Source: Meira nashicola
Taxonomy: Eukaryota; Basidiomycota; Exobasidiomycetes; Exobasidiales; Brachybasidiaceae
DNA: 64,000 bases
Reading direction: 5' to 3'
NCBI GenBank assembly: GCA_001600355.1
Contig: BCJU01000003.1
Location: forward strand, 2,918,519-2,982,518
Each line of letters opens with the position of its first letter. The first letter of the stretch is position 1. The notes beneath the pieces are model-generated. The model worked only from the letters and a program-made list of their open reading frames with translations, searched no databases and was not told where the DNA came from. Positions 23,143 through 40,985 of the stretch are shown here, piece by piece. Made by a program: the position numbers and the translations under genes.

Positions 23143-24804
23143 GATAATTGTCTATTTAAAACGATCATCAAGACCGATTCGACTTAACGAACAAAAAAAA
23201 AGGATGGATGTCGGAATTTCTTTTTGCGATCTTTGGGTAAATCCGGCAAAACAATCTAATCGATTCTCCGTACTTTTGGTTTTTTTTTGATAAGAACGGA
23301 AAAGGAATGTGTGAACCGAGCCTCGCGCGGAGTGGATGGCGTAAAATCAAAATGCGATCAAAGCGTTCCCCCGCTTGATGACGCCTATTCTTGTTTGATG
23401 GATGAAAAAAAATAAGAATTGAAATTAGACGGGGACCTCCTTTCGATCAAAGCAAAAGGAAAAGTTAACTTTCTTTCACGAAGAGCTAATGAGTGAACCC
23501 CTTCTTTTTACAGAAGTTGAAAGAGAGAGTTTGATGAGATTGAAGATGACAAAAAGATTGATCGAAATTCTTTTCTAATATGAGCGCCAATAATTGATGA
23601 GCTCGCAAACTTTAACGGGCAGCAATCGTGAATAAAATATATGCTGCATGCACGTATGTCGGAATCAACATTTACACACGGTTAGTCATTTATGGCAAGT
23701 GGACAGTCTATGGAAAAAGGGAAGTGTTGCGCGCTTCTGCTGCTTGACGCAAACAACAAACACGACTAAAACTATATTTATTAAAATCTTGCATGCATGC
23801 AAACACACGCACACACGCACACGAAAACACACTTGTACAAAACATTGCTTGGCTGAGAAAAAGTAGGTGGATTTGAAAAGAAAGAAAAAGGGGGGTACAT
23901 GTGTACACAATGAGCTCTTCTTCCCTACTTTTCTTTTTTTTCCAGAACAACACACCATTTTGATTGACATTTTTCTATAATTTTCACCACTGCCTCATTC
24001 TTCATTGGTGAGGGGACGATTGCTGTGGCATAATTAAAGTTCTTAACAATGTGTTTTTGCAGATCAGAGCGATATACTGCTGCATTTACATAACCTTATT
24101 ATTGCTTTTACCATGACGGCGGCGGCGGCGCTCGGATGAGGAATAACTTCATTTCGGAGTTTTAATTTAGGTAGCAGGGATCCGCATAATTGTGCTCATG
24201 AGCTAAAAAGTTTAAAACACATACGTATGTTATTGATGGCCAAAGTTTTTCATCGTGATCATATTTGGCACACCTTATTTTGATGTCATCGGTAAAGCGG
24301 TCCGCTCAACTAGGGCGCTGCGCTTTATTCATACCTCAAAGCACGCCATTTGATGAGGACGGAACAGTAAGAGCTGTCAGGTATTGATTAATACTGATTG
24401 TTCTATCGTGTTCTCATTATGCTTCCGAATATGATGACTTTAACGAATGAATAGATAGGCGTAATGTAACCTTGCTCAATTTTCAAAAGCCGTAATAGGC
24501 AAAGTCATTAATCAAACCACATAAGCAGTATAAATCTTTAGGTAGTTCTTTGCAAAATGAAAGGCCCTCCGCCTTTTTTTTCACAAATTAACGCCAATTT
24601 AAGCCCCCTCACGCCGGACGGGTGGCTTCATTTTGTACGTTTTCCATTTTTGTACAATTTTTTTTGCCCTTGCCGCCTTTTATGGAGTACGCTTCAGAAT
24701 GAATGCATTTAAAAAGCGGTCAAAAGGATTCCATTTTTGAGTTTTCCTTATTCTCAAGTAACTCCTTCTTCTCTTTCAACAACAACAACCTTAACCTCAA
24801 CAAG
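23143..24804. other. Large intergenic region (1.66 kb)
   Basis: No supportable gene. Contains a CA-rich microsatellite at about 23802-23831, a GGC triplet run (~24118-24131), several homopolymer T tracts, and a pyrimidine/A-rich leader just before the small secreted gene at 24805. Frames over the CA repeat are low-complexity artefacts. Confidence 0.6.
23802..23831. repeat. CA-rich microsatellite
   Basis: Imperfect (CA)n/(CACG)n tract: ACACACGCACACACGCACAC and neighbours. Confidence 0.7.
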
Positions 24805-25267
24805 ATGTTCAAGAATGTACTCTCAATTCTTACTCTTTTCTCTTCGATTTATCTATTGATGATGACAGTTCATTGTTTGCCTAACGTAAGTCGGAGATGA
24901 GTTTCAAAGTATTGCATTCCTTGTGACCTTTCTGACTTTTTTTTTTATCATCCCATTCTTTTTTCAGGCTACGAAGCCTTTATCAATCAAGCGCGGTGAA
25001 CAAGGTAGTAATAGCGGTATTCTAAAGAGAGAAACCGGATCCGAATTGAATAAACGATCCTTGGTCAACAAGTTCCGCAAAAGGACCGATCCAAAAAACT
25101 ATAATCAGATGCTAAGTAGTGCACCGGCACCTCAATCAAACCCGTATTGGAAGCCATCATCAGAGCCTTATTGGAAGCCATCATCAGAACCTTATTGGAA
25201 ACCGACAAAACGTGATAAAAATAGTCCTTTGTATGGTCAAATGTTGTCTGTTGAAATTGGGAAGTAG
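24805..25267 (+). CDS. Secreted Kex2-processed repeat peptide precursor (PYWKPSS repeats)
   Basis: Exon 1 24805-24885 (27 codons: MFKNVLSILTLFSSIYLLMM then TVHCLPN, a signal peptide), intron 24886-24967 (GTAAGT...TTTCAG, phase 0, 82 bases), exon 2 24968-25267; 126 residues in all. The mature part has five dibasic sites (SIKR, ILKR, NKR, FRKR, TKR). Between the last two lies a peptide with three tandem copies of PYWKPSSE/PYWKPTKR. Related runs NYNQMLS and LYGQMLS flank the repeats. No cysteine after the signal peptide. The design, a signal peptide plus KR-separated repeats, is that of kexin-processed secreted peptides such as smut repellent-type proteins and pheromone precursors. The peptide's activity is unknown. 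Confidence 0.75.
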
Positions 25268-25961
25268 ATGTTTCGGGATCCATAAAACGTTCAAATGAAG
25301 AAAAAGAGGAGAGCAAAAAGCAAGACTTTGATTCACGTTTCTCTCCAGATGTTCCGCTTAACATTTGAACCTTGTTTACTGTACCTTTCCTTCGTCCCTG
25401 CGTCGGAGTATTTTCATTTTTCAATTTTCTCTTGGTTTTGATAATAATTATGAATTTCAACAAATTTTTTTGCCTTTAGACACCAATGTTCAAAACAGGG
25501 GCTGAGAGCACTTCTCTTTTTTTTTGATCTTGACGGGGATTCAAAGATTTACTTGGCTATTAGGGGCAAACTCGGGTAGCATTTGACTTGATTGGCCCCT
25601 ATGCTGCGTCGGGACTTATACCTCACTCACTTCTTAGTTTGGTTGAAAGGGCAAAGTATAATTTGACTTTAGCCAATAATCTTCTTATTACTTAAAAGAC
25701 TTTGAATGGCGTTGAAAGAATCTTTTTACGGCCCTTATATATTAGCCGAAGATATCGTTTCTTTCTGGCTAAAAAGTATAATCGGGGATCAGTGTTAATA
25801 CTAAGTAAAATGATGGCAGTACTACTCGGGGTGATTGTTATACAATGGTAAGGATCTGACTGACATTGTAAAAGACATAAATAGACTTGATTTCTAACTT
25901 GTTTTAAGGTGAAAAGCCATCAGTAAGTAACATCAACTCATTGAGTAACATCAAATTAGAG
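25268..25961. other. Intergenic region with possible first exon of the next gene
   Basis: Mostly AT-rich, with TATAAT-like runs near 25660 and 25780. The end carries an imperfect repeat of AGTAACATCAA (25926 and 25944). An ATG at 25845 followed at once by GTAAGG could be a one-codon coding exon for the gene at 25962; see there. Confidence 0.4.
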
Positions 25962-26399
25962 ACAATCTCTACTTTTATTATCGCTTTAAGCGTTTTAACT
26001 TATTTATTTGAAGTAGCAATTGCATCTCCTATTCCAACAACTGGCGGTAGTCGTCATGGCTCACTTATACGTTCAAGTTCAGGTCCTGCTAGTTTATCTA
26101 GTCAAACACACTCTAGTCGTCCTAGCTCACCTGTACAAAGGCAAGCTACTCCTATGGCACCAGAATCACCTAAAACTAGGAAAGAGTGGCACCATGAAAG
26201 AGCAGGAAGATGGGAAGAGCATAATAATGATACAGCAAAAACGGCTAGAGACCACGGTAGAAATGCGTTACAGTCTGCACGTCAAGGTGATTATAAGAAA
26301 GCGGCAGTAAATTTAGGCGATGCTTGTCTTATGGGAATGATTTGTGGTATTGGACATATTACTAAAGCCGTTCATACGCAAAAGGCTAACAAACCCTGA
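25962..26399 (+). CDS. Small secreted protein candidate, start uncertain
   Basis: The open frame reads TISTFIIALSVLTYLFEVAI then ASPIPTTGG, a convincing signal peptide, followed by a Ser/Pro/Thr-rich part and a charged, possibly helical C-terminal half (KEWHHERAGRWEEHNNDTAK, GRNALQSARQGDYKKAAVNL), ending CLMGMICGIGHITKAVHTQK. The frame has no ATG before the signal peptide; it opens after a stop at 25905 and an in-frame TTG is at 25941. One solution is ATG at 25845-25847 joined to 25962 across an intron starting GTAAGG, giving MTISTFIIALS. Other 3' sites upstream cannot be excluded. No KR sites, unlike its neighbours. Function unknown. Confidence 0.5.
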   Translation, partial: TISTFIIALSVLTYLFEVAIASPIPTTGGSRHGSLIRSSSGPASLSSQTHSSRPSSPVQRQATPMAPESPKTRKEWHHERAGRWEEHNNDTAKTARDHGRNALQSARQGDYKKAAVNLGDACLMGMICGIGHITKAVHTQKANKP

Positions 26400-27373
26400 T
26401 CTGTAACCATTACATTTATTTCTTTGATTTCTCTTATTTCTTTTATCTGTTTTATTTTTTTATGTACATCTCTCATTCTTTTTTCGAATCAATATTTTGA
26501 TAATGTCTGAAGTGTAATAAATCGTGCTGAGCTATAAGTGTAACAATTAATCAAGTATACACCACGAAGCGTATAATTCTCATGTCTTAGAGATTTATGA
26601 TTCAAGACACAATAACGGAAGTTTTATTATGCTTTCGTTGTCGATTCTGGAGTCAGACGTATTAGCAGTTTTGTACATGATCATAAAGCCAAAAGAATTG
26701 TACTTTTTAGTCTTTTCTCTTATCATCTTTCTTTCTGCTCTTTATTTTTGTTTTCTTACGTTTCTGTTTTTAGCAATTTTGAATTTTGATCATCAAATTA
26801 AGATTTCCTACACGAATAAGCAAATTATCAACCGCTGCGTATTTCGACGATCATGAAAGTCAAATTAGTTTTATTTCCGTGTCTTCTTGTTTAAGGCTAT
26901 TTTCATAATAAAGGTCATTTGCAAAGAATCTGAGATTTATATTCAGATTTAAGCGGTTGCCGAAGAACTATAAAAAAGCAACGTACGGCTTTCCGCGTTT
27001 ATGCAAAATACTATTTTTGTTCATTAACCGTCAAAAATTCTGACTAAACTTAAGAATAAGATCAATTATTAAGCTTTATTTAGATTCAAAAGGGTTGACC
27101 GAGATAGCTTTTTATATTCTAGCGGCTACCATTTTGTTTGTTTAAAGTGTTATTGTACCAATTTAACCAGATCACTGTAAGGATGAAATTGTTTGATCTT
27201 CAGATTAAGTTGCTATAGCGAAATCTTTATTGTAAGTTCGAATTGCAAACAAAAAAAGGTTAAATAGAGGGACTTTTGTACAAGATTCTTCTCCTTTTTC
27301 TCCATCTCAATTCTCTCACTATCTCCTACCAACCAAATCAACAACCTAACAAATAAACATTCAATAATCAAAA
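26400..27373. other. AT-rich intergenic region (0.97 kb)
   Basis: No supportable gene. A 75-codon hydrophobic frame at 26629-26856 is AT-driven and has no intron/signal-peptide structure like its neighbours. A C/A-rich leader (27300-27373) precedes the next start. Confidence 0.5.
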
Positions 27374-28360
27374 ATGAAGGCTTTTGCAACTTTAAACTTC
27401 TTTTTCACGCTGGTGTTGGCCATGTCCTTCTTTACATTCACAGTAAATTGTGCTGCATTTGTGAGTATCATTTGTTTATAATTCTGTGGCAGTAATGACC
27501 ACTTACACTTTATCAATTCTTTTTTTCTAAAAAAACCACAGGAAATTCGTGATAATAAATCCAAAAACACTTATAAGTGCCCTGCTGGAAAACTTTGTAA
27601 GCGAATGAACGATGAATCGGAGTCAGTCAAACTTATCGAACGTGATGATAGAAAACACAAGCCTCTTTTACCCGAAAAACGTGAAGGAGTTTTAGTCAAT
27701 TCGATCAATTGCGGTCATGGAAGACTTTGTAAACGTATGAACGATGAATCGGATTTAATCAAAGTTATCGAACGTGATGATAAAATATACAAAACTGCTT
27801 CGCTCGAACATTTGAAACGTGAAGGAATTTCACTTGATGAATCAAGTTGTGGTCACGGAAGACTTTGCAAACGTACGAACGATGAAACGCAATCAGTCAA
27901 AATTAACGAACGTGATGATAAAAAATACAAAAACACTTTGCCCGGAAATTTAAAACGTAACGATGAATCGGATTCACTCAAGCTTGTCGACGGACGTGGT
28001 GATAAAATTTACAAATTACCCCAAAAACGTGATGATGCAAAACATAAACCACTTTTGCCCCAAAAACGTGAAGGAATTTTACTTGATTCATTAAGTTGCG
28101 GTCATGGTAGACTTTGTAAGCGTATGAACGATGAATCGGATTCAATCAAAGTTATCGAACGTGATTCAATCATTCCAAAGCCAGATTGTGCAAGTCATCT
28201 TTGCAAGAAACGTTCTCTTAATGAAGGTGAAACTATACTTGAAGAGAAGAAACGTGATTCATTCATTCCTAAACCAGATTGCAGTGGACACTTGTGCAAG
28301 AGACGTTCTATTCTCAAAGAAAATAAAGCAACGTATGACGCCATTGATCATGCCGATTGA
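27374..28360 (+). CDS. Secreted Kex2-processed multi-peptide precursor with Cys-loop repeats (CGHGRLCKR)
   Basis: Exon 1 27374-27460 (29 codons, signal peptide MKAFATLNFFFTLVLAMSFF), intron 27461-27541 (GTGAGT...CCACAG, phase 0), exon 2 27542-28360; 301 residues. About twelve KR sites cut the mature part into two alternating peptide types. One, starting EGVLVNS/EGISLDE/EGILLDS, ends in CGHGRLC-KR (three near-identical copies). The other starts MNDES or TNDET and carries VIERDD. The first peptide ends CPAGKLC-KR, and the last two Cys peptides share IIPKPDC or FIPKPDC and end CASHLC-KKR and CSGHLC-KRR. Each Cys pair encloses 4-5 residues immediately before the cleavage site, so small disulfide loops at peptide C-termini are likely. 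Comparable precursor designs occur in fungal RiPPs and signalling peptides, but no modifying enzyme is seen nearby. Confidence 0.85.
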
Positions 28361-28969
28361 ACGGGTCGTGATTGCCTTAAATGATTTTTTATCATGCAAC
28401 TTACTCATATAACAAAAAGATGTGCTGGTATATTTCTTTTATTTAAATTTCAACGTCTTCCACTCAAAGTTCTCATAGTCCAATGACTTCAACTTTTTAT
28501 CTTTTTGTCTTTAATACTTATTATGTATCCAACATCATAATTACAATAAATCAAATTTTAATACTTTACCAAAGAAAAAGACGGACTACCAGTAGAGATG
28601 CTACAGATGTTGGGCTGAATATTGAGCGATAATCGAAATCGCAAGTGAAGAAGGAAACAATCAGATTAGAAATACGCAGTCCGCTTTTGCGTTTACCGTT
28701 GACCGTAATAATTAGCCCAAAGCCCTCTATGATAAGCAATTCCATCCTTCATGTGCCTAATACATTTTAAGTCTATGTACAAATACCCTTTCTTACCATA
28801 TCTTATCATTATTAAACTTAAGCTACTCTCAATTCAGAAACTTATTCTATTATTTTCTTCATCACTTCTTCAACTTATCTTGTGAACATAAATTTCAAGA
28901 TTAATATACAAAATTTATAAAGTATTCGTGACTGTATGATACATTGTGCTTCTTCATTGGTGATTTTTA
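28361..28969. other. Intergenic region between convergent genes
   Basis: About 610 bases of AT-rich 3' flanks of the peptide precursor (plus) and the 7-TM gene (minus); nothing supportable inside. Confidence 0.5.
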
Positions 28970-30799
28970 TCAAGTTGTGTGTCTGCTATTCAGATCTGTA
29001 TATTCTTCTAAACGATCTAATCGATCCAAGTTATCACATGATAAGAGAACACTTCCACGATCAAGTCTTTTAGATTTATTTTGAGGAACGTCATCAGCAT
29101 CTATGCTAAAGTATGATAAACCAATACTTTCCATTGCAACTGCTTCTTTCGCATGATGATTTTGAACAGAATGAATTGAAGGTTGTAAGGTCGTACTCGG
29201 TGATAAGATTACTTGCATTGCAGTTAAATAACTATCTTCATTATCATTTTCTCTTTTATATAATTGTTGTTCTTGATCTTGCTTAATTTGAATTATACTT
29301 TCTGGAGTAGGATCAAAAATACGAGAAATGATTGAAAATGCAGCAGAAGTACCAAAAATAACACATGTCCAAGCAGAAACTAGATGTGTTTTTTCATATA
29401 ATTTACTTATTGCAATTGGACCTTTATTAACAACTGAAACGATTTCCATACTCCATAAAATTGAAATACTTGTAAAAATACTCAAAGCCATCAAGATGCT
29501 AAGATATAAAATCGTTAAACTGATCCAACATCGATGTGCATATTTATACCTCTCCATTCTTTCCTTTTGAGTACCTTGATGAATAGTTGTATGAAAAGTT
29601 GTAGGTGTAGAATTTTGTAATTCTGGAATCGTCGAACGAACAAATGTTTCTGCTGGTACTTCTGTCTTATCATCCGATTCGGATAAACGATGAAAAGGTG
29701 ATAATGAACGTGGATGATCGAAGTATGAATTCGCATTACCTATCATTTCTTGATCGTATGCATAAAATCTTAAACTGTCATGTCTTCTTTCCACTCTTGG
29801 AATGATGCCATCTTTTGAATTCCTTGAAAAGATTCGTTTAACTTTGCTTGGAATTTTGATCTTCTTCCAATATATCAAAGAATGCCAAGGTTTACTACTT
29901 TCTTGACACCTTTCTGAAGGTTGAAGTGAAAGATAATGTTGACGCATCTTTTGATAAAGTCTGACGGTTAATTGATATCCAACGATTGCATAGAATATCA
30001 ATAAGATAGAGGAAAGAATTGACCAAAATGCATACGAGATTCGATAAATTGTTGCTGCTTTTTTATGTCTATTCAAAGTTGTCATTGCCATTGCGAACAA
30101 TTCTTTACTTTCTTTTGCATTCAATTCGTTTTTCTTTATCAATTCATCATCAACAACTTTTAAAACACGTTGATGAAAATTATGATAAGTTTGAAGATTT
30201 TTTCTCAATGCTACTTCCGTACAAATTGCCAATGGAACTTGAATTACGCCAACGAGAAACGGTGAACCTAAACATAAAATGCTTAAAATTAAAGGTCTTG
30301 GAATGCATCTATGTAGTATTTTTGGAGAATCAAGAGATCCAATCGAAAAAAATGAACCCCAAGCAACGCATGAAATTGCACTTAATAATGGCCACCAACA
30401 TAAAATTTGCATAGTTGGTAATGCATTTTGAAGGATATCGTATTTCATCATATATGCAATAACTTCCATCGTACAAGTAAGTATCCAGCAAATGCCAAAA
30501 ATTGTAATACAAATCACAAAAGAAGTGATTGCATTTGGAACGATATATACTCCTTCTTGACGACGAATAAAACGAATGAACCAAACTTTCTTTTTTAAAA
30601 TTCGAACGATAAAGATTGGTAATCCGCATAAGATCAATAAAGCAATCCAAGCACAACTTGCAATCAATAAAATAAAATACGATTTTGGTAAATCAAACGT
30701 AAAAATTGAATGAACGAAATCGTCAAGTTGTAATAATGATTCGATGCTTCCTCCATCAAAATCGAGAAAGTCATCTATGATTTCTTGTGGTAATTTCAT
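28970..30799 (-). CDS. Seven-transmembrane protein of unknown family
   Basis: 609 residues from ATG 30799. Not recognised. Seven hydrophobic spans by eye: ~41-66 (YFILLIASCAWIALLILCGL), ~88-113, ~128-150, ~168-190, ~255-280 (FWSILSSILLIFYAIVGYQL), ~430-460 and ~478-498. A ~55-residue charged loop lies between spans 4 and 5 and a ~150-residue loop, rich in Ser/His/Arg, between spans 5 and 6; the C-terminal ~110 residues are polar and likely cytoplasmic. This matches the general look of orphan multi-pass proteins in basidiomycetes. A receptor role is possible but there is no diagnostic motif. It sits among the secreted-peptide genes, which is suggestive only. Confidence 0.7.
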   Translation of the reverse strand: MKLPQEIIDDFLDFDGGSIESLLQLDDFVHSIFTFDLPKSYFILLIASCAWIALLILCGLPIFIVRILKKKVWFIRFIRRQEGVYIVPNAITSFVICITIFGICWILTCTMEVIAYMMKYDILQNALPTMQILCWWPLLSAISCVAWGSFFSIGSLDSPKILHRCIPRPLILSILCLGSPFLVGVIQVPLAICTEVALRKNLQTYHNFHQRVLKVVDDELIKKNELNAKESKELFAMAMTTLNRHKKAATIYRISYAFWSILSSILLIFYAIVGYQLTVRLYQKMRQHYLSLQPSERCQESSKPWHSLIYWKKIKIPSKVKRIFSRNSKDGIIPRVERRHDSLRFYAYDQEMIGNANSYFDHPRSLSPFHRLSESDDKTEVPAETFVRSTIPELQNSTPTTFHTTIHQGTQKERMERYKYAHRCWISLTILYLSILMALSIFTSISILWSMEIVSVVNKGPIAISKLYEKTHLVSAWTCVIFGTSAAFSIISRIFDPTPESIIQIKQDQEQQLYKRENDNEDSYLTAMQVILSPSTTLQPSIHSVQNHHAKEAVAMESIGLSYFSIDADDVPQNKSKRLDRGSVLLSCDNLDRLDRLEEYTDLNSRHTT

Positions 30800-31452
30800 G
30801 ATGTTAATGTGAGAGAAAGAAGGCGATGGTGGACATTTTTATGGAGTAAAGAAAGATCCGCCTTTTTTATACGCCAATTGCTTACATGTCATAATGTTCG
30901 CTTATCTGGAGTCACGCCTTCTATGAAAGGCTCTCTTTTTCCGTCAAGACGGAGTCTAGAAGAATAATAAAAAAGTGTACCACATTTCCGATGTGAATTC
31001 AAATTCCGTAAATTCACCAAAAACGAGATACCTATGACACACTCTCCTTCATATTTTTGTGGGCGTTTCCAAATCTATTTACGTGTACATTCCGACGGTA
31101 ATGAAATTATGTATGCGCAACAAAGCCTTCCATTATATCCGTGACCCACAATTTATTTTTATAATGGCGCACTTCAAAAACAGATTCATACAAGATGATG
31201 GTGCTAAAGTGAGAGCAGAATTATTACACGTGCAGGATTCCCGAGGTAAAATTTCCAAAAGAGAAAAAAAAGTACGCGACGGCGCATTTTATTATATTTT
31301 TTTAGGTATTTATTTTGAACACAGACTCTGCATATACTCCGACAGATGAAACGCCCATAAGAAGTTTGTATACAGCATTTAGTAAAGAGAAGTTCCTATT
31401 CTTATCCTTATCATTCCTTCTTAAATTTGACGATCCGGTCATACCGTTAAGG
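30800..31452. other. Divergent upstream region, 7-TM gene / NOP12
   Basis: About 650 bases. The NOP12 reading frame is open upstream to 31315 but only from TTG; a 97-codon frame at 31059-31349 shows no family features. No supportable gene. Confidence 0.5.
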
Positions 31453-33489
31453 ATGGCTAAAAAAGGAAACAAGCGATCGTCCGAAAAGGCAGACAATACA
31501 ACCAAAACTACAATTCCACCTTCTTTTGATTCGGAGTTAGATGCTCTTTTCAGTGCTGCTTCTGCTTCTACAAAAAGTGCAAATGTCGAAAGTGATCATA
31601 AAGCCACCAAAAGAGGTAAAAGCTCCGATTTAAAGGTACCGGCAACAAAAGCGGCTCAACTCTCACAAGAAGACGATGATGAAGAGGTGGGAAGTGATGC
31701 AGAGATTGAAGGATTGGTAGAAGTAGAACAGCGATCAGAAGACGATGAGGGAGAAGAGGAACCGATGACCAACGAGATCGAAGACGGAGAATCTGTTGTG
31801 CTTTCTGAAGAAGAGGAAGATGACGACAACAAATCAGATTCCGATCCATCCAAATTGATTCATGAGACTTTACTGGCAAAAAACGGAAAGAAAAAAGAGA
31901 AAAAGAGAAAAGCAATCGATGATGAACCACAGGAAGCTCGGGACCGTCGAAGCATTTTCGTTGGTAATCTCCCTATCTCATTGGTCAAGTCAAGACCTGG
32001 ACTGAAAGCTCTTCAGAAGCATCTTATCGAGCAAAGCCCTTATCCATCTGCAACACACATTCAATCTATCCGATTACGATCTATTCCATTCTCAAAGCCT
32101 ACAGATGATTATGAAGCACGCAATCAAGAAGAAGCAGATAACAAGATGAAAAAGAGACAGAGAAGTAGAGCATACAAAGAAGCTTTGAATGAAGCAACAG
32201 GTGATTATAAAGAGAAAAAGCAGACTTTCTTGACTGGATCTCAAAAGAGAAAGGTAGCATTCATCACACAACAATTAAACGAAAAGGCCGACACTGTAAA
32301 TGCGTACATTACCCTATCTCCTTTAACTGAAAAACGCCTTGCTGTTTTAAAGGAAATTAGCGGAGACAATATTGTGGACAATTTGACAGCATCTGCATTG
32401 GCTGCTTTGTTGGCCCGATCCGCACATGGCTCAACATTTGAAGGGCGACATCTTCGTGTGGACATTGTGTCAGCCTTATTACCCTCAGAGTTGATCGAGA
32501 GTGGACTAGACACGATCAAAACAGCGGATGGAAGTATGTTGGGTGCAACTGCTGGAGGCGGTGGTGCAGATCAAGAAAGTAGAAGGAGGACTGCATTTGT
32601 TGGTAATATGGACTTTGAGACAAAAGATGAAGAAGTTTTAACATTCTTCAACGCTTTGATGATCGATGAGCGTGGCCAACCTCCTGCTTTGCCCAAATTA
32701 GACTTCAGCCGATGCACAAAACTTCCAAAACCTGAAAAAGCATTTGAAGAATCTCAAGTGCTACAACAAGCTTCTTGGGTACAAGATGTGCGTATAATTC
32801 GTGATTCTGCTACTCAAATGGGAAAAGGGTTCAGTTATGTGAAATTCCTTGATGCAGCTTGTGTGGATGAAATTATGGCAATGCATGAAACTGAAGAAGC
32901 GTTCCTTGCTGCTGCCAAATCGGGTAAATCCAACACTCCAATTGGACAATTCCGACGAAAATTAAAATTGAAAGGACGTCCTCTTCGTGTATCACGTTGC
33001 AAGGTACCAAAAGGACATGTAATTCCAACAAAGAGAGGTCGTGATACGAACGAAGGAAATAATATTAGCACTCCAAAAGCTAAGAACAGAAGTCGAAGTA
33101 CAGGGGCTCCTACTCCAGGCGGTACTTCGCCATTCGCTAAAAGGCAAAAGATGGCTAATGGACGTGGTGCCGAATCACCAACGGCAAGAAGAGTGGCTAA
33201 AATCCAAGGAGATAATGAAAAGCCTGCCATTGTTGTCTCTAATCCTTCACCGAAAAACAACGATCCGCTCAAAGCTGCACAATTGGCACAGAAGAAAGCG
33301 GATCCTGAGAGACAAGCAAAAAGAATGGCTAAGAAGAACGCCAAACGTGCATCATTGAAGATTACTTCTGAGATGGGAACGAAGGGCAAAGTATCTTTGA
33401 AACCGAATCAGAAGAAAAATGGCGGAAAAGCACCGAACGCACACAAGAAATCTCATTCTGCCAAGGTGAGAAAGCCAGGCAAAGTTTGA
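31453..33489 (+). CDS. NOP12: Nucleolar RNA-binding protein Nop12 (RBM34 family)
   Basis: Nucleolar protein of 60S/25S rRNA maturation. 678 residues from ATG 31453 (MAKKGNKRSSEK). An acidic serine-rich N-terminal region (~70-145) is followed by RRM1 beginning RRSIFVGNLP at ~165 with a long charged insertion (~215-265), and RRM2 beginning RRTAFVGNMDF at ~377 and ending GKGFSYVKFLD to ~460, also with an insertion. The tail is basic (KKADPERQAKRMAKKNAKR), as in nucleolar proteins. No intron needed; however, a GTGAGA at 33466 near the end can pair with the strong acceptor TCTGCAG ending at 33589 and would join this frame to the next gene. Confidence 0.85.
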   Translation: MAKKGNKRSSEKADNTTKTTIPPSFDSELDALFSAASASTKSANVESDHKATKRGKSSDLKVPATKAAQLSQEDDDEEVGSDAEIEGLVEVEQRSEDDEGEEEPMTNEIEDGESVVLSEEEEDDDNKSDSDPSKLIHETLLAKNGKKKEKKRKAIDDEPQEARDRRSIFVGNLPISLVKSRPGLKALQKHLIEQSPYPSATHIQSIRLRSIPFSKPTDDYEARNQEEADNKMKKRQRSRAYKEALNEATGDYKEKKQTFLTGSQKRKVAFITQQLNEKADTVNAYITLSPLTEKRLAVLKEISGDNIVDNLTASALAALLARSAHGSTFEGRHLRVDIVSALLPSELIESGLDTIKTADGSMLGATAGGGGADQESRRRTAFVGNMDFETKDEEVLTFFNALMIDERGQPPALPKLDFSRCTKLPKPEKAFEESQVLQQASWVQDVRIIRDSATQMGKGFSYVKFLDAACVDEIMAMHETEEAFLAAAKSGKSNTPIGQFRRKLKLKGRPLRVSRCKVPKGHVIPTKRGRDTNEGNNISTPKAKNRSRSTGAPTPGGTSPFAKRQKMANGRGAESPTARRVAKIQGDNEKPAIVVSNPSPKNNDPLKAAQLAQKKADPERQAKRMAKKNAKRASLKITSEMGTKGKVSLKPNQKKNGGKAPNAHKKSHSAKVRKPGKV

Positions 33490-33631
33490 ATAAAGCGAAA
33501 GGGAAACATTGTATTCTGAAACATCTTTTTTTCTTTTCCTCCATTCTGTAATATTATTCAATTCGACCCTTTCTCTTCTTGGTCTGCAGAAACGTCTATC
33601 GCTGACATCTTTGGCACTCTTGGCATTATCG

Positions 33632-34621
33632 ATGATCGCTCTCGTTATCATTCCAGGAACTTCTGCAAATAATGAGATTCTCAATTTTGGGCCAATCATG
33701 TGCGCTGCTGATGAACATGGGCATTTGCAAGAGAAAGCAGCAAGGGAATTAAGTAAAGATTGGCCAAGTATAAAACCATTTTCGGGTGTACAGCTTTTCT
33801 CTGTGGATCCTGTCAATGAACCTGAAGTTTGGATCGCCTTGGACTTGGAGGAAGTGAAAGAGATAGTTGATGGAGATGTTTCCGCTTCAAGTTCAGATCG
33901 TTCAATTTCGACTCGCAAATCTACAACTTCCGTTTTGCCTTCGGAATTACACTCGGCAGCATTCCCTTTGATAAGTCGAGATATTCAAACCGACTTTTCA
34001 CCAAGAGATCTTTGGTTAAAAATGTTACCAAAAAGGTTTGAATGGTATACGTATTCAAAAAGGTTTTCTTTTCGAGTTGATTGGTCAGCAAATTTTCCAA
34101 TTAAAGTTCAAGCAAACGTTCATACGCCTCATAGTATGTTATCAACCGGTAAAGCACGTTGGCAAGCAAATGAATATGAATTTGATGAAAATCGAAGAAC
34201 GGAAGAACAAGATTTGATCGATGCAATTTATTGGCCTTGTCCTAGGGTTTACGTGCATCTCAAAGTTGACATTGAAGCTTTGCCTATTCCGCCGCCAAAA
34301 CAGAATCATGTTAAGCAATCTTCTCTTTGGGATATGCTTGTTAACCTATCAGAATGGTACATTGGACCTTTGACCAATCCTTTCAAAGAAGGCAATTTTG
34401 GTCCAAACGATAAGATTATTTCACCTGTTCCCGTTCATTTGATTCTCGAGCCTGTTTATCTCGGCTTCATACCACATACAAGTTTAAGCCTATTTATGGT
34501 TTTGATACCGTTTTTGTTATTTTCAACTTTCGTTCTTGCACCAATTGTGAAGAAGAAATTGAATGAAATTTTAGCACAAGAAGACGATCAAACAACCTCA
34601 CAAGCACGTAAAAAGCAGTAA
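33632..34621 (+). CDS. ER-type single-pass membrane protein, possibly Pga1-like; start uncertain
   Basis: The frame is open from 33509 without an ATG until 33632 (MIALVIIPGTSANNE). Upstream of this, KRLSLTSLALLALSMIALVI reads like the start of a signal sequence, and it begins exactly after the acceptor GGTCTGCAG at 33581-33589. So either an upstream exon supplies the ATG (the only in-frame donor I see is inside NOP12, 33466), or translation starts at 33632 with a short signal. The body (~300 residues) contains YSKRFSFRVDWSANFPIKVQ and YWPCPRVYVHLKVD, then a C-terminal membrane span SLSLFMVLIPFLLFSTFVLA and a short KKK tail. This topology fits a lumenal ER protein; the FRVDWSANFP strand resembles the W-S-A type strand of Pga1, the Gpi18 partner in GPI-anchor mannosylation, but I hold that weakly. 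Confidence 0.5.
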   Translation: MIALVIIPGTSANNEILNFGPIMCAADEHGHLQEKAARELSKDWPSIKPFSGVQLFSVDPVNEPEVWIALDLEEVKEIVDGDVSASSSDRSISTRKSTTSVLPSELHSAAFPLISRDIQTDFSPRDLWLKMLPKRFEWYTYSKRFSFRVDWSANFPIKVQANVHTPHSMLSTGKARWQANEYEFDENRRTEEQDLIDAIYWPCPRVYVHLKVDIEALPIPPPKQNHVKQSSLWDMLVNLSEWYIGPLTNPFKEGNFGPNDKIISPVPVHLILEPVYLGFIPHTSLSLFMVLIPFLLFSTFVLAPIVKKKLNEILAQEDDQTTSQARKKQ

Positions 34622-34805
34622 AATACAGAATTTCAAATCATCTTGTACATTAGTCATATTTATCATTGTGATGACCTAATAAGCTGACGCCTATTAATTT
34701 AATGTCGGGATTCCGAAGCATTTTGACAATACATTTCTTGTTAAGATTCCGAATTTTCCGTCATGTTTTCTTCGGCGCCGTTTCGTTATTTATGAGACAA
34801 AGGGG

Positions 34806-34812
34806 TATATAA
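34806..34812 (+). promoter_or_regulatory. TATA box of the secreted peptide gene at 34882
   Basis: TATATAA (GGGTATATAAGG) about 70 bases upstream of the ATG, followed by a C/T-rich leader. Confidence 0.55.
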
Positions 34813-34881
34813 GGTAATATAAATTGTTCCCTTCCTGATACTTTTCTACATCTTGGACATCCTAACCTTTATCAATCTAAC

Positions 34882-35124
34882 ATGAAGCAAATTTTCATCA
34901 TTTTCGTTAGTGTCATCATCACTTTGGCTTTGGCTTCAATTGCGTCAACTAGCCCTGCGCCAGCGCTTAATGTGAGTAGAGTCAAAAGATTTGTTAACAA
35001 CAAACACTAATCCATCTCCTTCTATCAGATTGGTGAAATCAAAGCAAGAAGTTTATCAAAAGTGACCGGCAAGATTCCTAAATCTGGCCAGCCTGCACCT
35101 GCTTGCGTGGAACCACCATGCTAA
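34882..35124 (+). CDS. Small secreted peptide precursor ending CVEPPC
   Basis: Exon 1 34882-34971 (30 codons, MKQIFIIFVSVIITLALASI then ASTSPAPALN), intron 34972-35028 (GTGAGT...ATCAG, 57 bases, phase 0), exon 2 35029-35124; 61 residues. The mature part is IGEIKARSLSKVTGKIPKSG then QPAPACVEPPC and stop. Only two cysteines, at the very C-terminus, enclosing four residues. It has no KR pair, but KAR and basic residues could be cut. The signal peptide start MKQIFII is nearly the same as MKQVFII of the gene at 39943, pointing to common origin. Too short and split for simple ORF calling; the two-exon model rests on splice consensus and the shared architecture. Confidence 0.7.
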
Positions 35125-35446
35125 GGGATATGCATACGTACTTGAAGGTCTTTATTAAGACAGATAACAAGATGATGGGTTTATTAATGGTTATCGACTT
35201 CTCATCTCTGTAACTCTCAATCTACTCGCTTCAATGCACGATTTCAAATAATCGATTGAGCTTATTGAAATCTATATACAATGTTTTGCGTTTTTGGAGT
35301 GAAAAGTGCTGTAAGAATTTGAATGGCATCCATGAAGGGGATGTGTGTAATGCTTGATTAATTTGGTATGAATATGCTGGGCGTGTAAGATTAAGAAGAA
35401 TGCAGGATCAACCTACATGATAAAATTTCTAGAGAGAAAGAACTCT
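35125..35446. other. Short intergenic region between convergent genes
   Basis: About 320 bases of 3' flanks; nothing supportable seen. Confidence 0.5.
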
Positions 35447-37981
35447 TTATTTCTTCTTCAAAGCAGCTAATTGATCAGCTTTAGTCAATTGTAACTTTCC
35501 TACACCTCCAACAGGTAAGAAAGTATTATTTGATCCGCTTGAAGATGAAAATTGAGGTCCTTTTGGTGCATGTGGAGATTGTCCAGGTTTGAGTGTAAAA
35601 GAGACAGGTTGTTTTGGTAATTGATAAGAAATTCCTAAACTTTCTAATTCTTCTTTTAATTGACGCATCAATTGCGTTCTACGAGACCAACGTTGTCCCC
35701 AATCTTGCCAATTACCTTTATGTTCCATTGCTATAACCAATTCGATCGAATTCGTTTGAGATTCGATAGTGTTCAAATTGATTTCCATACCTCCACCCCA
35801 TTCACGATCATGTTCTTTAACGTATGTTCGCATACGTGAACGTAATTCGTCAATCATTTCTAACAAAGTAGAATCGTAACCGACTTGAATCATTGTAACT
35901 TCCCATTGATTGTTCGATCTACGACAATTGAAAATCATCTTTTGCGAACTGAGTAAAGCATTTGGTGCAACAATCGTTTCGTTATAAACGGTACGGAAAG
36001 TTGTACTGATCAAGCCAAATTCGACAACAAACATAAAGTTTTCGTCAACACAAACCAAATCTCCTACATCATATGGATGTGTAGCAAAGATGAACACCAT
36101 CGATTCGAACAAAGTCTTGGCGCTATTTCCAAAAATGAATGAGAAACCGACGACAAAGGTTGAAAGAGGAGCAATGTTTGCCACTGTATTATCTCCGTTA
36201 AAGATCAAAAGCCAAATAAAGATCATGATAATCAATGCAACACCTAAAAGTACACCGTCCAACTTTTGAACAGCTGAACTTGCATCTTTGAGTGATGTTG
36301 CCAATGCACGACGTTCTCTAAAGATTCTTTGAACGCCATCACGAAATTCTTGCTTGCTCACATCTCCATTACCATCTGCATCGAAATGTTTGAATGCTTC
36401 ACGAGCTTCTTCAAAAGAGTCGAAAAAGGGTTCAAAATCCTCTGCTACCAGAGTAGTACGATGATGTCCAACAGCGTTGAAAAGTTTCTTTGCTAAACGA
36501 CGAGCAGAGAGCATTTTCTTGTTCCTATACAACTTGGAATCTTTCATCGTTGCAGTTTGCAAGGCATCCGTCAATTGGGAAGCAAAGTTTTGTTTGCGCA
36601 TTTCCTTTTCATCGAGTTGTTTTGGTGTTTTAGTACCCTTCTTTCCTTTTGGTGTACCAGCACCTCCGCTGTTGCCATGTTGTTGTTCTTGTAATGGTGA
36701 TCCATCCCGAGCAGCGCTGTTTCCGAAAAAGCCACCAGTTTGAGAAGCATTTTTATGATGACCGAAAGCGACATTAGCACTCGGTGATTGAGGTCGACTT
36801 CCAAAACCGAACTTTTGTCCCCAAATACCTGTTTGTCGTTTGCTGTTCACACCACTAGCGAGGTATTTGCTATCGGCTAAACGATCCAGAGCTCTAAGTG
36901 CAGATTGATTCGTCTCAAGGCGTTCTTTGAGAGATACTTTGTGGAAATTGATAGCAACCAATTGAAGTGCAAATTTCTCTGCGACGAGTATGATACCAGA
37001 AGCGAAAAGTGCTTTGATTGTAAGAAGAATCCATTTAAAGTATGGCGGATGAGCCTGACCTGGGAATTCAACGGCTAAGATACCACCCAACGAAATCCAT
37101 GCCCAAGTGATACAAAGAACTAATTTGATCCAAATCATGATTGCGATAAAAACTTCAACGTAAGTCTTGAAAGCTGGAGGAGCTTTACCATAAAATGCTA
37201 CACCAACCTTAAGCACGATTGGAGGAATCCAGTCCATTACCAAAAAAGTACCACAAGCTGCTGCCCAAATGATAGCAATCCAAATTGACCAAGTTTGTAC
37301 TTGTGGTCGAACGGGATTATTTTTAAAGGCAGCAGTTGTAACGATAAAAGGTACCATAGCAATACCTGTACCCAAGAGACCAAACACAAATATACGTACC
37401 GGTCGTGCTAAGCGCATAAGCCAAAGCCATACTCTACGACCACGTTTTGCGCGAATGACTCGTTTACCTTTGTTATCAATCTCTTCTGCTTCATCATCAT
37501 CATTATCCGAATCGTCTGTATTCCAATCAAAATCGTCGGTCTCATCGCCTGAGCTATCCCATTCTTCTCCGTCTTCATCAACGTGATGATGATGATAATG
37601 ATGACCACCACCACCAGATTTACTTTGTTGTGGCGGATAATCGTTTTGGGGGNGTGTTGAATACTTTTCCGCTAAATAAGGATTTTTATCCTTATCAACT
37701 AGAGTATCATATTGTACGGAACCTTTTGAATCTTTTCCTCTTTGATGACCGTTGCTTTCGTATGATTGTTCACCTTCAAATCCAGGTTGCATTCCTTCAT
37801 AAAAATGTGGATTGTTTGGGTCATGTTGATGAATATGGTGAGCGGGAGGATTAGGATTAGAAGTGGCAGAATCGAAACTGGATTGAGATTGCATTCCTGG
37901 CCGCACAGGTGCGCGTAAGCTATCTAATGGTATTAAAGAAGGATCTGCACCCTCTCCACGAACATATGGTAGAGAGGACAT
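35447..37981 (-). CDS. MscS-type mechanosensitive channel with EF-hand (Msy1/Msy2 type)
   Basis: 844 residues. Calcium-regulated mechanosensitive channel; relatives act in the ER/perinuclear membrane of fission yeast to limit calcium on hypo-osmotic shock. Layout: disordered N-terminal ~180 with His/Asp/Glu runs; four hydrophobic spans ~190-350 (FVFGLLGTGIAMVPFIVTTA, FIAIMIWIKLVLCITWAWIS and others); a linker; an EF-hand at ~530-545 (FKHFDADGNGDVSKQEF with the Asp/Asn ligands intact); two spans ~570-620 (GVLLGVALIIMIFIWLLIF, ANIAPLSTFVVGFSFIFGNS); then the MscS beta domain (FIFATHPYDVGDLVCVD, TFRTVYNETIVAPNALLSS). One ambiguous base (37653) leaves residue ~110 undefined beside a run of G; the frame is otherwise intact. 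Confidence 0.93.
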   Translation of the reverse strand: MSSLPYVRGEGADPSLIPLDSLRAPVRPGMQSQSSFDSATSNPNPPAHHIHQHDPNNPHFYEGMQPGFEGEQSYESNGHQRGKDSKGSVQYDTLVDKDKNPYLAEKYSTXPQNDYPPQQSKSGGGGHHYHHHHVDEDGEEWDSSGDETDDFDWNTDDSDNDDDEAEEIDNKGKRVIRAKRGRRVWLWLMRLARPVRIFVFGLLGTGIAMVPFIVTTAAFKNNPVRPQVQTWSIWIAIIWAAACGTFLVMDWIPPIVLKVGVAFYGKAPPAFKTYVEVFIAIMIWIKLVLCITWAWISLGGILAVEFPGQAHPPYFKWILLTIKALFASGIILVAEKFALQLVAINFHKVSLKERLETNQSALRALDRLADSKYLASGVNSKRQTGIWGQKFGFGSRPQSPSANVAFGHHKNASQTGGFFGNSAARDGSPLQEQQHGNSGGAGTPKGKKGTKTPKQLDEKEMRKQNFASQLTDALQTATMKDSKLYRNKKMLSARRLAKKLFNAVGHHRTTLVAEDFEPFFDSFEEAREAFKHFDADGNGDVSKQEFRDGVQRIFRERRALATSLKDASSAVQKLDGVLLGVALIIMIFIWLLIFNGDNTVANIAPLSTFVVGFSFIFGNSAKTLFESMVFIFATHPYDVGDLVCVDENFMFVVEFGLISTTFRTVYNETIVAPNALLSSQKMIFNCRRSNNQWEVTMIQVGYDSTLLEMIDELRSRMRTYVKEHDREWGGGMEINLNTIESQTNSIELVIAMEHKGNWQDWGQRWSRRTQLMRQLKEELESLGISYQLPKQPVSFTLKPGQSPHAPKGPQFSSSSGSNNTFLPVGGVGKLQLTKADQLAALKKK

Positions 37982-38742
37982 GATGGAGAGAAAAGTTTTA
38001 GTTTCTCTCCTAACTTCTTCTCCTGTTCAGGACCAGCCGATAGAACAGGAAATTGAAAGACGTGTATGGAGTTGTTACGCCAGGTTTATATATGTGTGTT
38101 TGAAAGTGATTGGAATTGCTTCCTTGTAATAGCGATGATGATGGAGATGAGGGATATATGCTAAAGATTTCAATATGCAATTTACTGTCATTGACATTCA
38201 TTCTTTCTTTCGGCCGGCGAAATGTGTTGCTTGGCATATTAACCAAAACTTTTTTAGTGCGATTTCGCCTTTGTCCGAATAAATTTTCTGCAACATTACC
38301 GAATTGACAACAACATGTACCCGTAGTGCAAACTTTTTTCCCCCACGTCATCCCTGTCCCTATTTTTTTTTATTTGATTTGATTCTTGTGTTTTAGTGGA
38401 ACGCACGCGGTGTACGAACGGCGCGTAATTAAGGCACTGCATGCAAGCTTCACGAGACTTCGATTTGGTTGCATATAACACATACACAGGCAGACGATGC
38501 TAGTGAAAAGAATAAATAGAAACACGGGAAATTTCCAAACAAAAGGAGAGGAAGTATCACCACAGCAAAAAATAAGAATGATTAAAAAACGCGAAGAGAC
38601 ACTGACTTTGAACCGCCACCCCGAAATTCCAATACTATGCATGACCAAGATGCAAGGTCAGATGTGATCTTAGTGAATTGATGATATGATCGCGCAGTAA
38701 AGGTTACAGCTTTGATCTTAAGCTTTTTCTCTTTCATCTTTG
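37982..38742. other. Intergenic region MscS channel / secreted peptide cluster
   Basis: About 760 bases. Upstream region of the MscS gene followed by the 3' flank of the minus-strand peptide gene. Short frames here (38010-38351, 38370-38648) have no support. Confidence 0.5.
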
Positions 38743-39038
38743 TCAAGACCGTTTGCATTTTGATTTATGACATTTGGGAGGCGTTCTAAAGTTGCTCAAA
38801 TTTGAAGCAATAGAATATTTACTACGCTTTATTGAATCGTGGCTTTCAGTAGCTTCATCTTGACTGTTTATAAGTCGCTCGGATAGTGATGGACTTGCTA
38901 TATTCATCTAGACGGCAAAACATCATATTAGTGACATACTATTATGGTACAAACCACCTCACTCACAATCGGCAAAGACGCAACTTGGAGGCTGATCAGG
39001 ATGAAGGTCGTTAAGAAAAGAAAGAGATTGAAGAGCAT
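38743..39038 (-). CDS. Small secreted Kex2-type peptide precursor ending CHKSKCKRS
   Basis: Exon 1 39038-38967 (24 codons, signal peptide MLFNLFLFLTTFILISLQVA then SLPI), intron 38966-38908 (GTGAGT...GTCTAG, 59 bases, phase 0), exon 2 38907-38743; 78 residues. The mature part starts MNIASPSLSERLINSQ, has a KR site (HDSIKR), and the released peptide SKYSIASNLSNFRTPPK runs into CHKSKC followed by KRS and stop. This is the same two-Cys-then-KR ending as in the large precursor at 27374. A longer in-frame ATG at 39134 exists, but 39038 gives a clean signal peptide and lies ~50 bases from a TATA-like box. Confidence 0.75.
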
Positions 39039-39649
39039 GAGTGCTGTTAGAAAAGTTTGAATGCAGAAGAAATAATTATTGCTCTTTATATTTGCTGCGT
39101 GAATTGATGATGAAAGGTCAGAAATAGCGCACACGTTATCCCCTAATACTTCTCACGGCAGCGCTTGGCATAGTCTTATCCACGCTTACTAAATTCGTTA
39201 TCATTTCCGAATTGATTCGGCAATCGCCAACCATGACATCAATGATAATAATTAATTTGATTTTTAATATAAATTGTCCCTTTCGCGGCTCCCCGCTTTT
39301 GAAGATAAAGCAAATTTTACACACGGTCGATCGATATTAAATAGGTCTGAGAACATAAACGGTCCGAATTGAAAGTCGCGAAATCGATAAAAGGCTAAAA
39401 AAAGTAAGGGAAGTCAAAGCCCAGCCGAAAAAGTCTCTCATTTTCAACGTTATTGAAGTCTAAAACACGATGATAAGAGAACTGTCAAAAGGTTGTTAGC
39501 CGATAAGGGGCGCTATAATCCGACTAAGTTCATTTTATAAATTGTATTTAGCGAGAAAAGACAAGATAAGGATAAATATAAAAATGGTCTTTAATCACTA
39601 TTGAGTGAAAAAAGAACTAAGAAAGGAGGCATAGTTCGAAAATCAAATT
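39039..39649. other. Intergenic region within peptide cluster
   Basis: About 610 bases. Minus-strand ATATAAAG near 39083-39092 is a likely TATA box for the gene starting at 39038. Otherwise AT-rich with no supportable gene. Confidence 0.5.
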
Positions 39650-39943
39650 TCAGCAATGGTCCTGGCATCCAATAATGTTTGGCACTCCTGCGCCTCGCTT
39701 AAGGTTTTGAGATGGTTCATTAAAAGTGCGCTTTTCGTAGCTTGTAGTGATTGTCTCAATCGAGCGCTTAAACGGTTTTCCGCTTTTATTTGCCTAGAAA
39801 GAGAGATTAAAGGAGATTATATCTCAGTAACAATAGAACTAAAAAAGTCTGTTATCACTCACAATATTGAATGGCATAGAGTGCACTCTGCAAACACAAA
39901 GAAATAAAGCGAGTGCGAAAATGATGATGAATACTTGCTTCAT
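39650..39943 (-). CDS. Small secreted Kex2-processed peptide precursor ending CQDHC
   Basis: Exon 1 39943-39863 (27 codons, signal peptide MKQVFIIIFALALFLCVC then RVHSMPFNI), intron 39862-39794 (GTGAGT...TTCTAG, 69 bases, phase 0), exon 2 39793-39650; 74 residues. Three KR sites cut the mature part into ANKSGKPF-KR, SIETITTSYE-KR, TFNEPSQNL-KR and the C-terminal peptide GAGVPNIIGCQDHC. The last peptide ends in two cysteines enclosing three residues. Every KR sits at the end of a 10-12 residue segment, as in multi-peptide precursors. Closest in signal-peptide sequence to the gene at 34882. Confidence 0.78.
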
Positions 39944-39983
39944 AGCGAATGATTTAGGTTTTGAATGAGTTGGATGAAGAGGG

Positions 39984-39990
39984 ATTTATA
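39984..39990 (-). promoter_or_regulatory. TATA box of the peptide gene starting at 39943
   Basis: TATAAAT on the minus strand (TTTTTATAAATCCC) 41-47 bases upstream of the ATG. Confidence 0.5.
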
Positions 39991-39996
39991 AAAATT

Positions 39997-40657
39997 CAAA
40001 TAAAAAGACAAGGACTTTATATAACTTGAAAAGAAATAAAATTCTTAAGTCTCAACCTTTTATATTGCGCCAAAAAGACCTTATTTATCCGAACAAAAGC
40101 CATAAAAGAAATGACAAATTGAAAAAGAAATGTAATCCGTCCTACATGCATCGGGTAATGTATTTGTATCATAAACCTTATTCAAATACGTTGGCCGGAT
40201 CCTGGATTTAGAAAATTAGCCGCGGTTCCCATAATTCTTTGTTCCTGAACATTTAAGTAGCCGAATAGTGAAACTTAATAAAGGCAGCCTGCGGGAAAAG
40301 CCATATTTGCCAAGTATTAGAATTTCATTCATAATTGTGCATGAAGGCTGAATAATTTAGTAATAACTTCGGCGGTGTTGTAGTGAGTCCGTGTCAATTG
40401 GTTAATTTGATTGGTGGCTGTTATAAGACACATTATAAAATTTACGCCAAACATTTTAGTTGACTCCGAAATGAGTATGAATACATGATCAAGGTAGAAT
40501 AAGAGATTGTTAATACACTTTCTTTCGTAACCATAGCGATGAGAAATAGTTTAAAATTGTATATTAAATTTCAGTATATTGACAATGTGATACATAATTA
40601 ATAAGGCGACGGAGAGACAACAAATCACTTCATTATAAAGTTCATCAACAGAGAGTT
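39997..40657. other. Intergenic AT-rich region within peptide cluster
   Basis: About 660 bases with no signal-peptide exon or credible frame on either strand that I could find. Confidence 0.45.
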
Positions 40658-40902
40658 TTACGTCACAGGGTGGGGTTTGCATTGAGGTTCATTTTGTGTA
40701 TAATTTGAACACTTAATACAACGTTCAAGTTGAATACTAGTAGTTTTACTGTCACGCTTGATAAACCCCTATAAGATAGGAAATACCATCATTAGTAGTG
40801 TTCAATTTCGAAAATAAAACTTACCACAGGAGCAGACATAGCAGACATGCTCATAATGAGAGCCATAAAAGCGAACAAGATGACGAGATTGTTCTTCATC
40901 AT
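40658..40902 (-). CDS. Small secreted cysteine-containing peptide precursor with KR site
   Basis: Exon 1 40902-40825 (26 codons, signal peptide MMKNNLVILFAFMALIMSMS then AMSAPV), intron 40824-40769 (GTAAGT...TTATAG, 56 bases, phase 0), exon 2 40768-40658; 62 residues. One KR site soon after the signal peptide (GFIKR) would release a 31-residue peptide DSKTTSIQLERCIKCSNYTQ then NEPQCKPHPVT, with three cysteines (C-x2-C-x9-C). The odd cysteine count allows a dimer or a free thiol. A minus-strand TATATAAAG box lies ~85-92 bases upstream. Unknown function. Confidence 0.72.
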
Positions 40903-40985
40903 AGTTATGTGTTTGTAGAATGGATATATGTTGCTGATGGTTTGTGCGAAGAAAATGGAGGGGGAGTCCAACAAATTCTTCCTCT

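What the first reader, a model, noticed from the sequence alone, without database searches (positions are those of the whole stretch)
24805..40902. Family of two-exon secreted peptide genes scattered over 16 kb
Six genes (24805, 27374, 34882, 39038, 39943, 40902) share one build: a 24-30 codon signal-peptide exon, a phase-0 intron of 56-82 bases immediately after it, and a single exon for the mature part. Five contain KR (Kex2) sites; four carry a pair of cysteines 3-5 residues apart next to a KR or the stop (CGHGRLC, CHKSKC, CVEPPC, CQDHC). Two signal peptides are nearly identical (MKQIFII, MKQVFII). The set looks like an expanded, fast-diverging family of secreted peptides, possibly signalling, effector or antimicrobial. 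I recognise no described family.
Basis: partly seen in the sequence, partly recalled or inferred. Interest (0 to 1): 0.9.

Follow-up and report, generated by a model that had tools for sequence, protein, structure and literature searches.

The report
Clustered fungal secreted ring-peptide genes
A stretch of a basidiomycete fungus genome carries six small genes for secreted peptide precursors, one of them with a relative in another fungus and built to be cut into several copies of a tiny ring-shaped peptide that looks like a signal, lying next to a gene for a receptor-like membrane protein.

Summary
In detail: six intact two-exon models with consensus phase-0 introns. A strict detector finds five of them (shuffle mean 0.13); raw hits are 6-8 times denser here than in 200 kb sampled from the 17.9 Mb genome. 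'Family' holds only loosely: A, B, D, E and F find no paralog, and only C and E share letters, in the signal peptide. Four (B, C, D, E) place Cys-x(3-5)-Cys at a predicted mature C-terminus. Gene B is a KEX2-processed repeat protein (KEP). Its relative in Meira miltonrushii keeps CGHGRLC-KR exactly and the order of first and last ring types. B's three CGHGRLCKR copies differ only synonymously (10 pairwise differences at 5 sites, 0 nonsynonymous), while their arms vary freely. The genome has a kexin. I read B as precursor of a disulfide-ring signalling peptide; C, D and E as single-copy precursors of similar shape; A and F as secreted neighbours. A seven-helix protein (28970-30799), possibly GPCR-like, lies 609 bp from B: a candidate receptor, untested. 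Splicing, cleavage, disulfides and function are inferred.

The parts
24805..25267 (+). Gene A, 126 aa, exons 24805-24885 and 24968-25267; 5 KR sites, three PYWKP repeats, no Cys in the mature part
   Evidence: relative P0003 from a metagenome, 86-87% identical over about 67 aa with both KR sites of that part kept
27374..28360 (+). Gene B, 301 aa, exons 27374-27460 and 27542-28360; KEX2-processed repeat precursor with six C-x(4-5)-C rings, 12 KR
   Evidence: Meira relative P0002
27683..27736 (+). B core unit EGVLVNSIN-CGHGRLC-KR
27821..27874 (+). B core unit EGISLDESS-CGHGRLC-KR
28070..28123 (+). B core unit EGILLDSLS-CGHGRLC-KR
34882..35124 (+). Gene C, 61 aa, exons 34882-34971 and 35029-35124; ends CVEPPC-stop, no KR, one IxxR (IKAR)
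   Evidence: aliphatic-x-x-R as an extended Kex2 motif from passages of PMC8528282
38743..39038 (-). Gene D, 78 aa, exons 39038-38967 and 38907-38743; CHKSKC-KR-S-stop
39650..39943 (-). Gene E, 74 aa, exons 39943-39863 and 39793-39650; 3 KR, last peptide GAGVPNIIG-CQDHC-stop
40658..40902 (-). Gene F, 62 aa, exons 40902-40825 and 40768-40658; 1 KR, 3 Cys, no C-terminal ring
28970..30799 (-). 609-aa seven-helix protein, convergent with B, 609 bp away; candidate receptor (speculative)

Best explanation
The six loci are real genes for secreted peptide precursors in an Exobasidiomycetes-like basidiomycete. The first exon encodes a signal peptide; the second encodes the pro-part. Gene B is a KEX2-processed repeat protein: Kex2 cuts after KR, a Kex1-like carboxypeptidase trims the basic residues, and the main products are 14-16-residue peptides with an N-terminal arm of 8-9 residues and a C-terminal ring closed by a disulfide (CGHGRLC three times; CASHLC and CSGHLC once each, the former needing a cut at VIER rather than KR). 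A first piece ending CPAGKLC is longer. E releases one peptide of the same shape (9 residues plus CQDHC), D a longer one ending CHKSKC, and C one ending CVEPPC. The ring of B is the functional part, and B most likely acts as an extracellular signal sensed by the fungus itself. A and F are secreted, KR-bearing neighbours of unknown relation. Shown by sequence: gene models, rings, KR sites, ring conservation, a kexin in the genome. Inferred: splicing, secretion, cleavage, trimming, disulfide, signalling role.
For: Models and splice sites. Density and chance controls. Rings in 4 of 6 genes, at most 2 of 6 in 20,000 shuffles; 6 of 951 unspliced ATG-ORFs of 40 aa or more in the window plus the sampled 200 kb end C-x(3-5)-C-stop. 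B against Meira P0002: signal peptide, first ring C[PA]AGK[LV]C, exact CGHGRLCKR, and last segment SIIPxPxC in the same order; arms of 9 residues in three Meira cores and 8 in the last, as in B. Among the three B cores, 10 synonymous and 0 nonsynonymous pairwise differences (5 variable sites) in CGHGRLCKR, against about 5 and 19 in the 9-codon arms. Kexin with S8 and P domains, L001. A ring held across genera while the arm drifts fits a receptor ligand better than an arms-race effector (inference).
Against: No transcript, peptide or SignalP evidence. B's relative is known in one other species only, at a weak single-sequence E of 0.017, and Meira's first ring is followed by NR, not KR. B also releases spacer pieces of 11-26 residues, several of them repeats of each other, with no assigned role. 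C, D, E and F were not searched against the large protein collection, so outside conservation is unknown. C has no KR. KEP knockouts in Coprinopsis showed no phenotype (PMC9769878, passages), so a KEP need not be an obvious signal. The 3' end of A differs in frame from its metagenome relative. A Kex1-like enzyme was not looked for.
Confidence: 0.55

Rival explanations
1. The cluster is a set of host-directed effectors or host-signal-mimicking peptides, released into the plant apoplast after Kex2 cleavage.
For: Small, secreted, locally concentrated; A, B, D, E and F without paralogs in the genome. Kex2-processed effectors are a recognised class, and U. maydis has 15 repeat proteins, 8 of them apparently Kex2-processed (PMC8528282, passages).
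Against: B's ring is frozen while the arms drift and is identical in Meira. No host-contact expression data; host and lifestyle of this organism are unknown.
Confidence: 0.25
2. The peptides are antimicrobial or act on competing microbes.
For: Short Cys-ring peptides released in several copies from one precursor; competition with other microbes is plausible (inference).
Against: By eye the ring peptides of B carry few charges and no amphipathic stretch (not computed); synthetic KEP peptides of Coprinopsis gave no growth inhibition of bacteria (PMC9769878, passages).
Confidence: 0.12
3. Only B (and perhaps A) is a functional peptide precursor; C to F are ordinary orphan small secreted proteins that happen to be near, and the C-terminal Cys pairs of C, D and E are coincidence.
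For: No sequence homology among them except the C/E signal; KR excess is weak or absent in C, D and F; the two-exon build occurs elsewhere.
Against: 4 of 6 rings at predicted mature C-termini against at most 2 of 6 in 20,000 shuffles; 0 of 17 relaxed-detector hits outside the stretch carry one.
Confidence: 0.3
4. The six models are chance open frames.
For: Short exons, no transcript data.
Against: 0.13 mean hits in shuffles, consensus introns, relatives of A and B outside the genome.
Confidence: 0.03

Closest known systems
KEX2-processed repeat proteins (KEPs), PMC6339444 and PMC7329392 (passages; section 10 of the former)
   Same: Gene B: signal peptide, repeated cores bounded by KR, a kexin in the genome.
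   Different: B's cores end in a C-terminal Cys ring and alternate with spacers; its ring is not among the conserved motifs named in section 10 of PMC6339444. C, D, E and F carry single cores and A's repeats are not split by KR, so they are not KEPs by that definition.
Ascomycete alpha-type pheromone precursors, and the Cys-pair KEP of Trichosporon oleaginosus (QSWGGCGGRGTPCW) reported in PMC6339444 (passages)
   Same: Multi-copy Kex2 precursor of a short peptide with two cysteines; six residues apart in that KEP, four or five in B.
   Different: No alpha-factor family in Pfam, no repeated XA/XP Ste13 signature in B, ring at the very C-terminus, no Trp.
Ustilago maydis Rep1 repellents
   Same: Kex2-cut secreted precursor in the same subphylum.
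   Different: Rep1 peptides are given as 37 residues acting on hyphal wall properties (PMC6339444, passages); B's are 14-16 residues with a Cys ring.
Dikaritin RiPPs (ustiloxin type)
   Same: Kex2-cut repeat precursor.
   Different: No UstYa match in the genome (control uninformative); B's five main ring cores lack tyrosine.
Blumeria Y/F/WxC effector candidates (PMC2886064, passages)
   Same: Short secreted proteins with little sequence identity but one shared intron build.
   Different: [quoted passage not shown] here it is phase 0, directly after the signal peptide.

Membership tests
KEP | N-terminal secretion signal | tested here: met
   Hydropathy detector finds all six in its relaxed form and 5 of 6 in its strict form; SignalP not available
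KEP | Repeated cores separated by Kex2 sites (gene B) | tested here: met
   Three CGHGRLC cores bounded by KR on both sides and two xIPKPDC cores followed by KKR/KRR, one of them preceded by VIER instead of KR; 12 KR against 3.2 expected. Borderline by my arithmetic against the 15% repeat-content threshold of PMC6339444: 16% for the 16-residue unit, 9% for CGHGRLCKR
KEP | Repeated cores separated by Kex2 sites (genes A, C, D, E, F) | tested here: not met
   Single cores; A's PYWKP repeats have no KR between them
KEP | Kex2 protease in the genome | tested here: met
   L001 778-3534, Peptidase_S8 E 1.7e-46 and P_proprotein E 5.1e-25
KEP | Peptides released in vivo | not testable with these tools
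   needs peptidomics
alpha-type pheromone | alpha-factor Pfam domain | tested here: not met
   no such family listed at E up to 1 for any of the six
alpha-type pheromone | Ste13 XA/XP repeats after KR | tested here: not met
   B cores begin EG or DS; one Meira core begins SPIP
alpha-type pheromone | STE2 receptor in the genome | tested here: inconclusive
   no match, but the control rang nowhere
basidiomycete lipopeptide pheromone | C-terminal CaaX, no signal peptide, near STE3 (features recalled) | tested here: not met
   signal-like N-termini present; none ends in CaaX with aliphatic a (D ends CKRS); all four STE3 matches lie on contig C1, not C3
dikaritin RiPP | UstYa/DUF3328 partner | tested here: inconclusive
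   no match, control uninformative
GPCR (neighbour 28970-30799) | seven-helix GPCR fold, N-terminus outside | tested here: inconclusive
   [not shown]

The most novel reading that the evidence does not exclude
Gene B and the seven-helix protein next to it are a peptide hormone and its receptor: a non-mating, alpha-factor-like disulfide-ring signal with a lineage-specific GPCR in a basidiomycete, a phylum whose known mating pheromones are only of the lipopeptide kind; C, D and E would be ligands of related shape for paralogous receptors.
Probability: 0.12. Interest if true: 0.85.

Novelty: new variant of a known kind. Interest (0 to 1): 0.55.

Why it matters
The KEP literature leaves open what basidiomycete KEP peptides do (PMC9769878, passages) and which GPCRs perceive them (PMC6339444, passages). 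This locus gives a concrete, compact case: a precursor with a relative in another genus, a seven-residue ring marked as the functional part by its substitution pattern, four precursors converging on one mature shape within 13 kb, and a candidate receptor gene beside the main precursor. Each link can be tested with a synthetic peptide and two gene deletions.

Tried and rejected
Homologous family: rejected; genome searches with A, B, D, E and F found only the genes themselves; C was tested only by its signal pattern. Third MKQ[IV]FII match, L009: no signal-peptide gene there. Pheromone response element (ACAAAGGGA, recalled): 2 one-mismatch sites in 6 upstream regions of 600 bases against about 1.7 expected, no enrichment. 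Shared upstream 8-mers: CAAATTAA in 5 of 6, P 4e-7 before correction for some 33,000 words, so a weak lead. TATA-like boxes: C, D, E, F yes, A and B no. Pfam on the six: nothing over a cut-off; E against DUF3302 at E 0.0042 is below cut-off and covers residues 4-40, mostly signal peptide. Solved structures: nothing useful for B (one match, E 0.65, ribosomal) and none for the seven-helix alignment. Protein search with the B/Meira profile: no further relatives at E up to 10 among the 7,989 candidates scored. Gene A relative L037:311: shares PYWKP repeats; the PYWKP DNA pattern occurs 8 times in the genome (3 in A, 2 at C4:1.2007 Mb, 1 inside a longer frame of L039, 2 in loci where I saw no PYWKP frame on the strand read), control 1. 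Mating-type linkage: STE3 matches lie on another contig. Literature searches; no paper of that library holds CGHGRLC, FA14DRAFT_181873, NPYWKP or SEPYWKP. Only open-licence papers are held and supplementary tables were not readable, so B or its Meira relative may be listed in a KEP supplement.
Full report
What was checked. I read the two relevant stretches, listed frames and tested GT..AG pairs near each start. Donors are GTAAGT or GTGAGT, acceptors end in CAG or TAG, and all six introns are in phase 0.

More than chance? I wrote a detector (hydrophobic start, consensus donor, pyrimidine-rich acceptor, branch-point-like word, second exon of 18-320 residues). In 24000-41500 its strict form gives 5 hits, all among the six genes (B fails its intron filters); 60 dinucleotide shuffles of the same stretch give a mean of 0.13, at most 2. 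Twenty systematically placed 10-kb stretches give 7 hits, of which I judged one credible by eye (L037:311). With relaxed filters: 7 hits in the 17.5-kb target (the six plus one), 4 in the other 46.5 kb, 13 in the 200 kb; hits with a C-terminal ring are 4, 0 and 0. In the relaxed sample a second credible gene appears (L031:7117). Taking 2 credible genes per 200 kb as background, six in 17.5 kb has a Poisson P of 3e-8; taking all 13 raw hits as background, seven has P 2e-4. By raw hits the density ratio is about 8 (strict) and 6 (relaxed). The stretch was chosen because it looked rich, so these figures overstate the surprise.

Not one homologous family. Protein searches of the genome with A, B, D, E and F return only the genes themselves. 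Among the six, only C and E are linked, through the first residues of the signal peptide and 18 of 20 bases at the start. The MKQ[IV]FII pattern has three exact matches in 17.9 Mb, and the third is not a signal-peptide gene. So C and E may share an old signal exon; the rest share a build.

What they do share. Four of six (B, C, D, E) put C-x(3-5)-C directly before KR/KK or the stop, so that after Kex2 and a Kex1-like trim the ring would be the C-terminus. In 20,000 residue shuffles of the mature parts at most two genes showed this; 6 of 951 unspliced six-frame ATG-ORFs of 40 aa or more in the window and the sample end that way at a stop. The last peptide of E (GAGVPNIIG-CQDHC) has nine residues before the ring, as do the three CGHGRLC cores of B and three cores of the Meira relative. 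A and F have no such ring.

Gene B. Cut at KR, B gives three EGxxxxxxx-CGHGRLC peptides, two DSxIPKPD-CxxHLC peptides (the first of which needs a cut at VIER, an aliphatic-x-x-R site, since no KR precedes it), a first piece ending CPAGKLC, and spacers, several of which are repeats of each other. The large protein search found one relative outside this genome, an uncharacterised protein of Meira miltonrushii (E 0.017 for one sequence). That E-value is weak, but the alignment is specific: a matching signal peptide (VLAMSF...VNC), a first ring C[PA]AGK[LV]C (followed by NR in Meira), an exact CGHGRLCKR, and a last segment SIIPxPxC. Searching with the two aligned found no more among 7,989 candidates scored. 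Within B the three CGHGRLCKR units differ pairwise at 3, 2 and 5 positions (5 variable sites), all synonymous, while the nine-codon arms before them differ at about 5 synonymous and 19 nonsynonymous positions summed over pairs. The ring, not the arm, is what selection holds. The genome has a kexin with catalytic and P domains; a Kex1 was not sought.

Gene A. A metagenome protein, P0003, is 86-87% identical over about 67 residues with both KR sites of that part and all three PYWKP motifs kept, which supports A as coding. Against a perfect match: P0003's C-terminal tail runs on, and the corresponding letters of the window lie in another frame behind A's stop. PYWKP repeats recur in another two-exon secreted protein, L037:311 at C4:1200311.

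How it most likely works. Secretion, Kex2 cleavage, trimming and disulfide closure give ring peptides; B's is probably a signal to the fungus itself. I put about 0.9 on the genes being real, 0.85 on B being Kex2-processed and 0.45 on self-signalling (my estimates). Host-directed effectors are the main functional rival.

Comparison with what is known. B meets the sequence criteria of a KEP as used in PMC6339444 and PMC7329392 (passages, and section 10 of the former), though borderline on the 15% repeat-content threshold of the former by my arithmetic. C, D, E and F do not, having single cores, nor does A, whose repeats are not separated by KR. None of the passages that I read describes a KEP with a C-terminal Cys ring in this class of fungi; the words Exobasidi and Meira do not occur in the main texts of PMC6339444 and PMC7329392, nor Exobasidi in that of PMC9769878. 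Supplementary tables were not available to me.

Organism. Named by inference only: the nearest relative of B is in Meira miltonrushii, which I recall as one of the Exobasidiales; the genome is 17.9 Mb with about 40% GC in the window.

Noticed in passing
window 28970-30799 (-): Seven-helix, possibly GPCR-like 609-aa protein without Pfam match, with five clear and two weaker relatives in the genome.
   Followed up: partly
window about 25845-26399 (+): Open frame with a signal-like stretch (FIIALSVLTYLFEVAIASPIP) but no clear start codon or intron model; only a weak similarity to a two-exon hit in L020 (E 0.052).
   Followed up: partly
L037:311-937 (C4:1200311): Two-exon, phase-0 secreted protein with NPYWKPQ repeats, recalling gene A.
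   Followed up: partly
L031:7117: Two-exon, phase-0 secreted Cys-rich peptide with KR sites.
   Followed up: no
window 25214-25378: Behind the stop of gene A another frame encodes GSIKRSNEEKEES, similar to the tail of the metagenome relative P0003: the 3' frames differ between lineages.
   Followed up: partly
window 35447-37981 (-): The mechanosensitive-channel frame contains one codon read as X, so the window holds an ambiguous base there.
   Followed up: no
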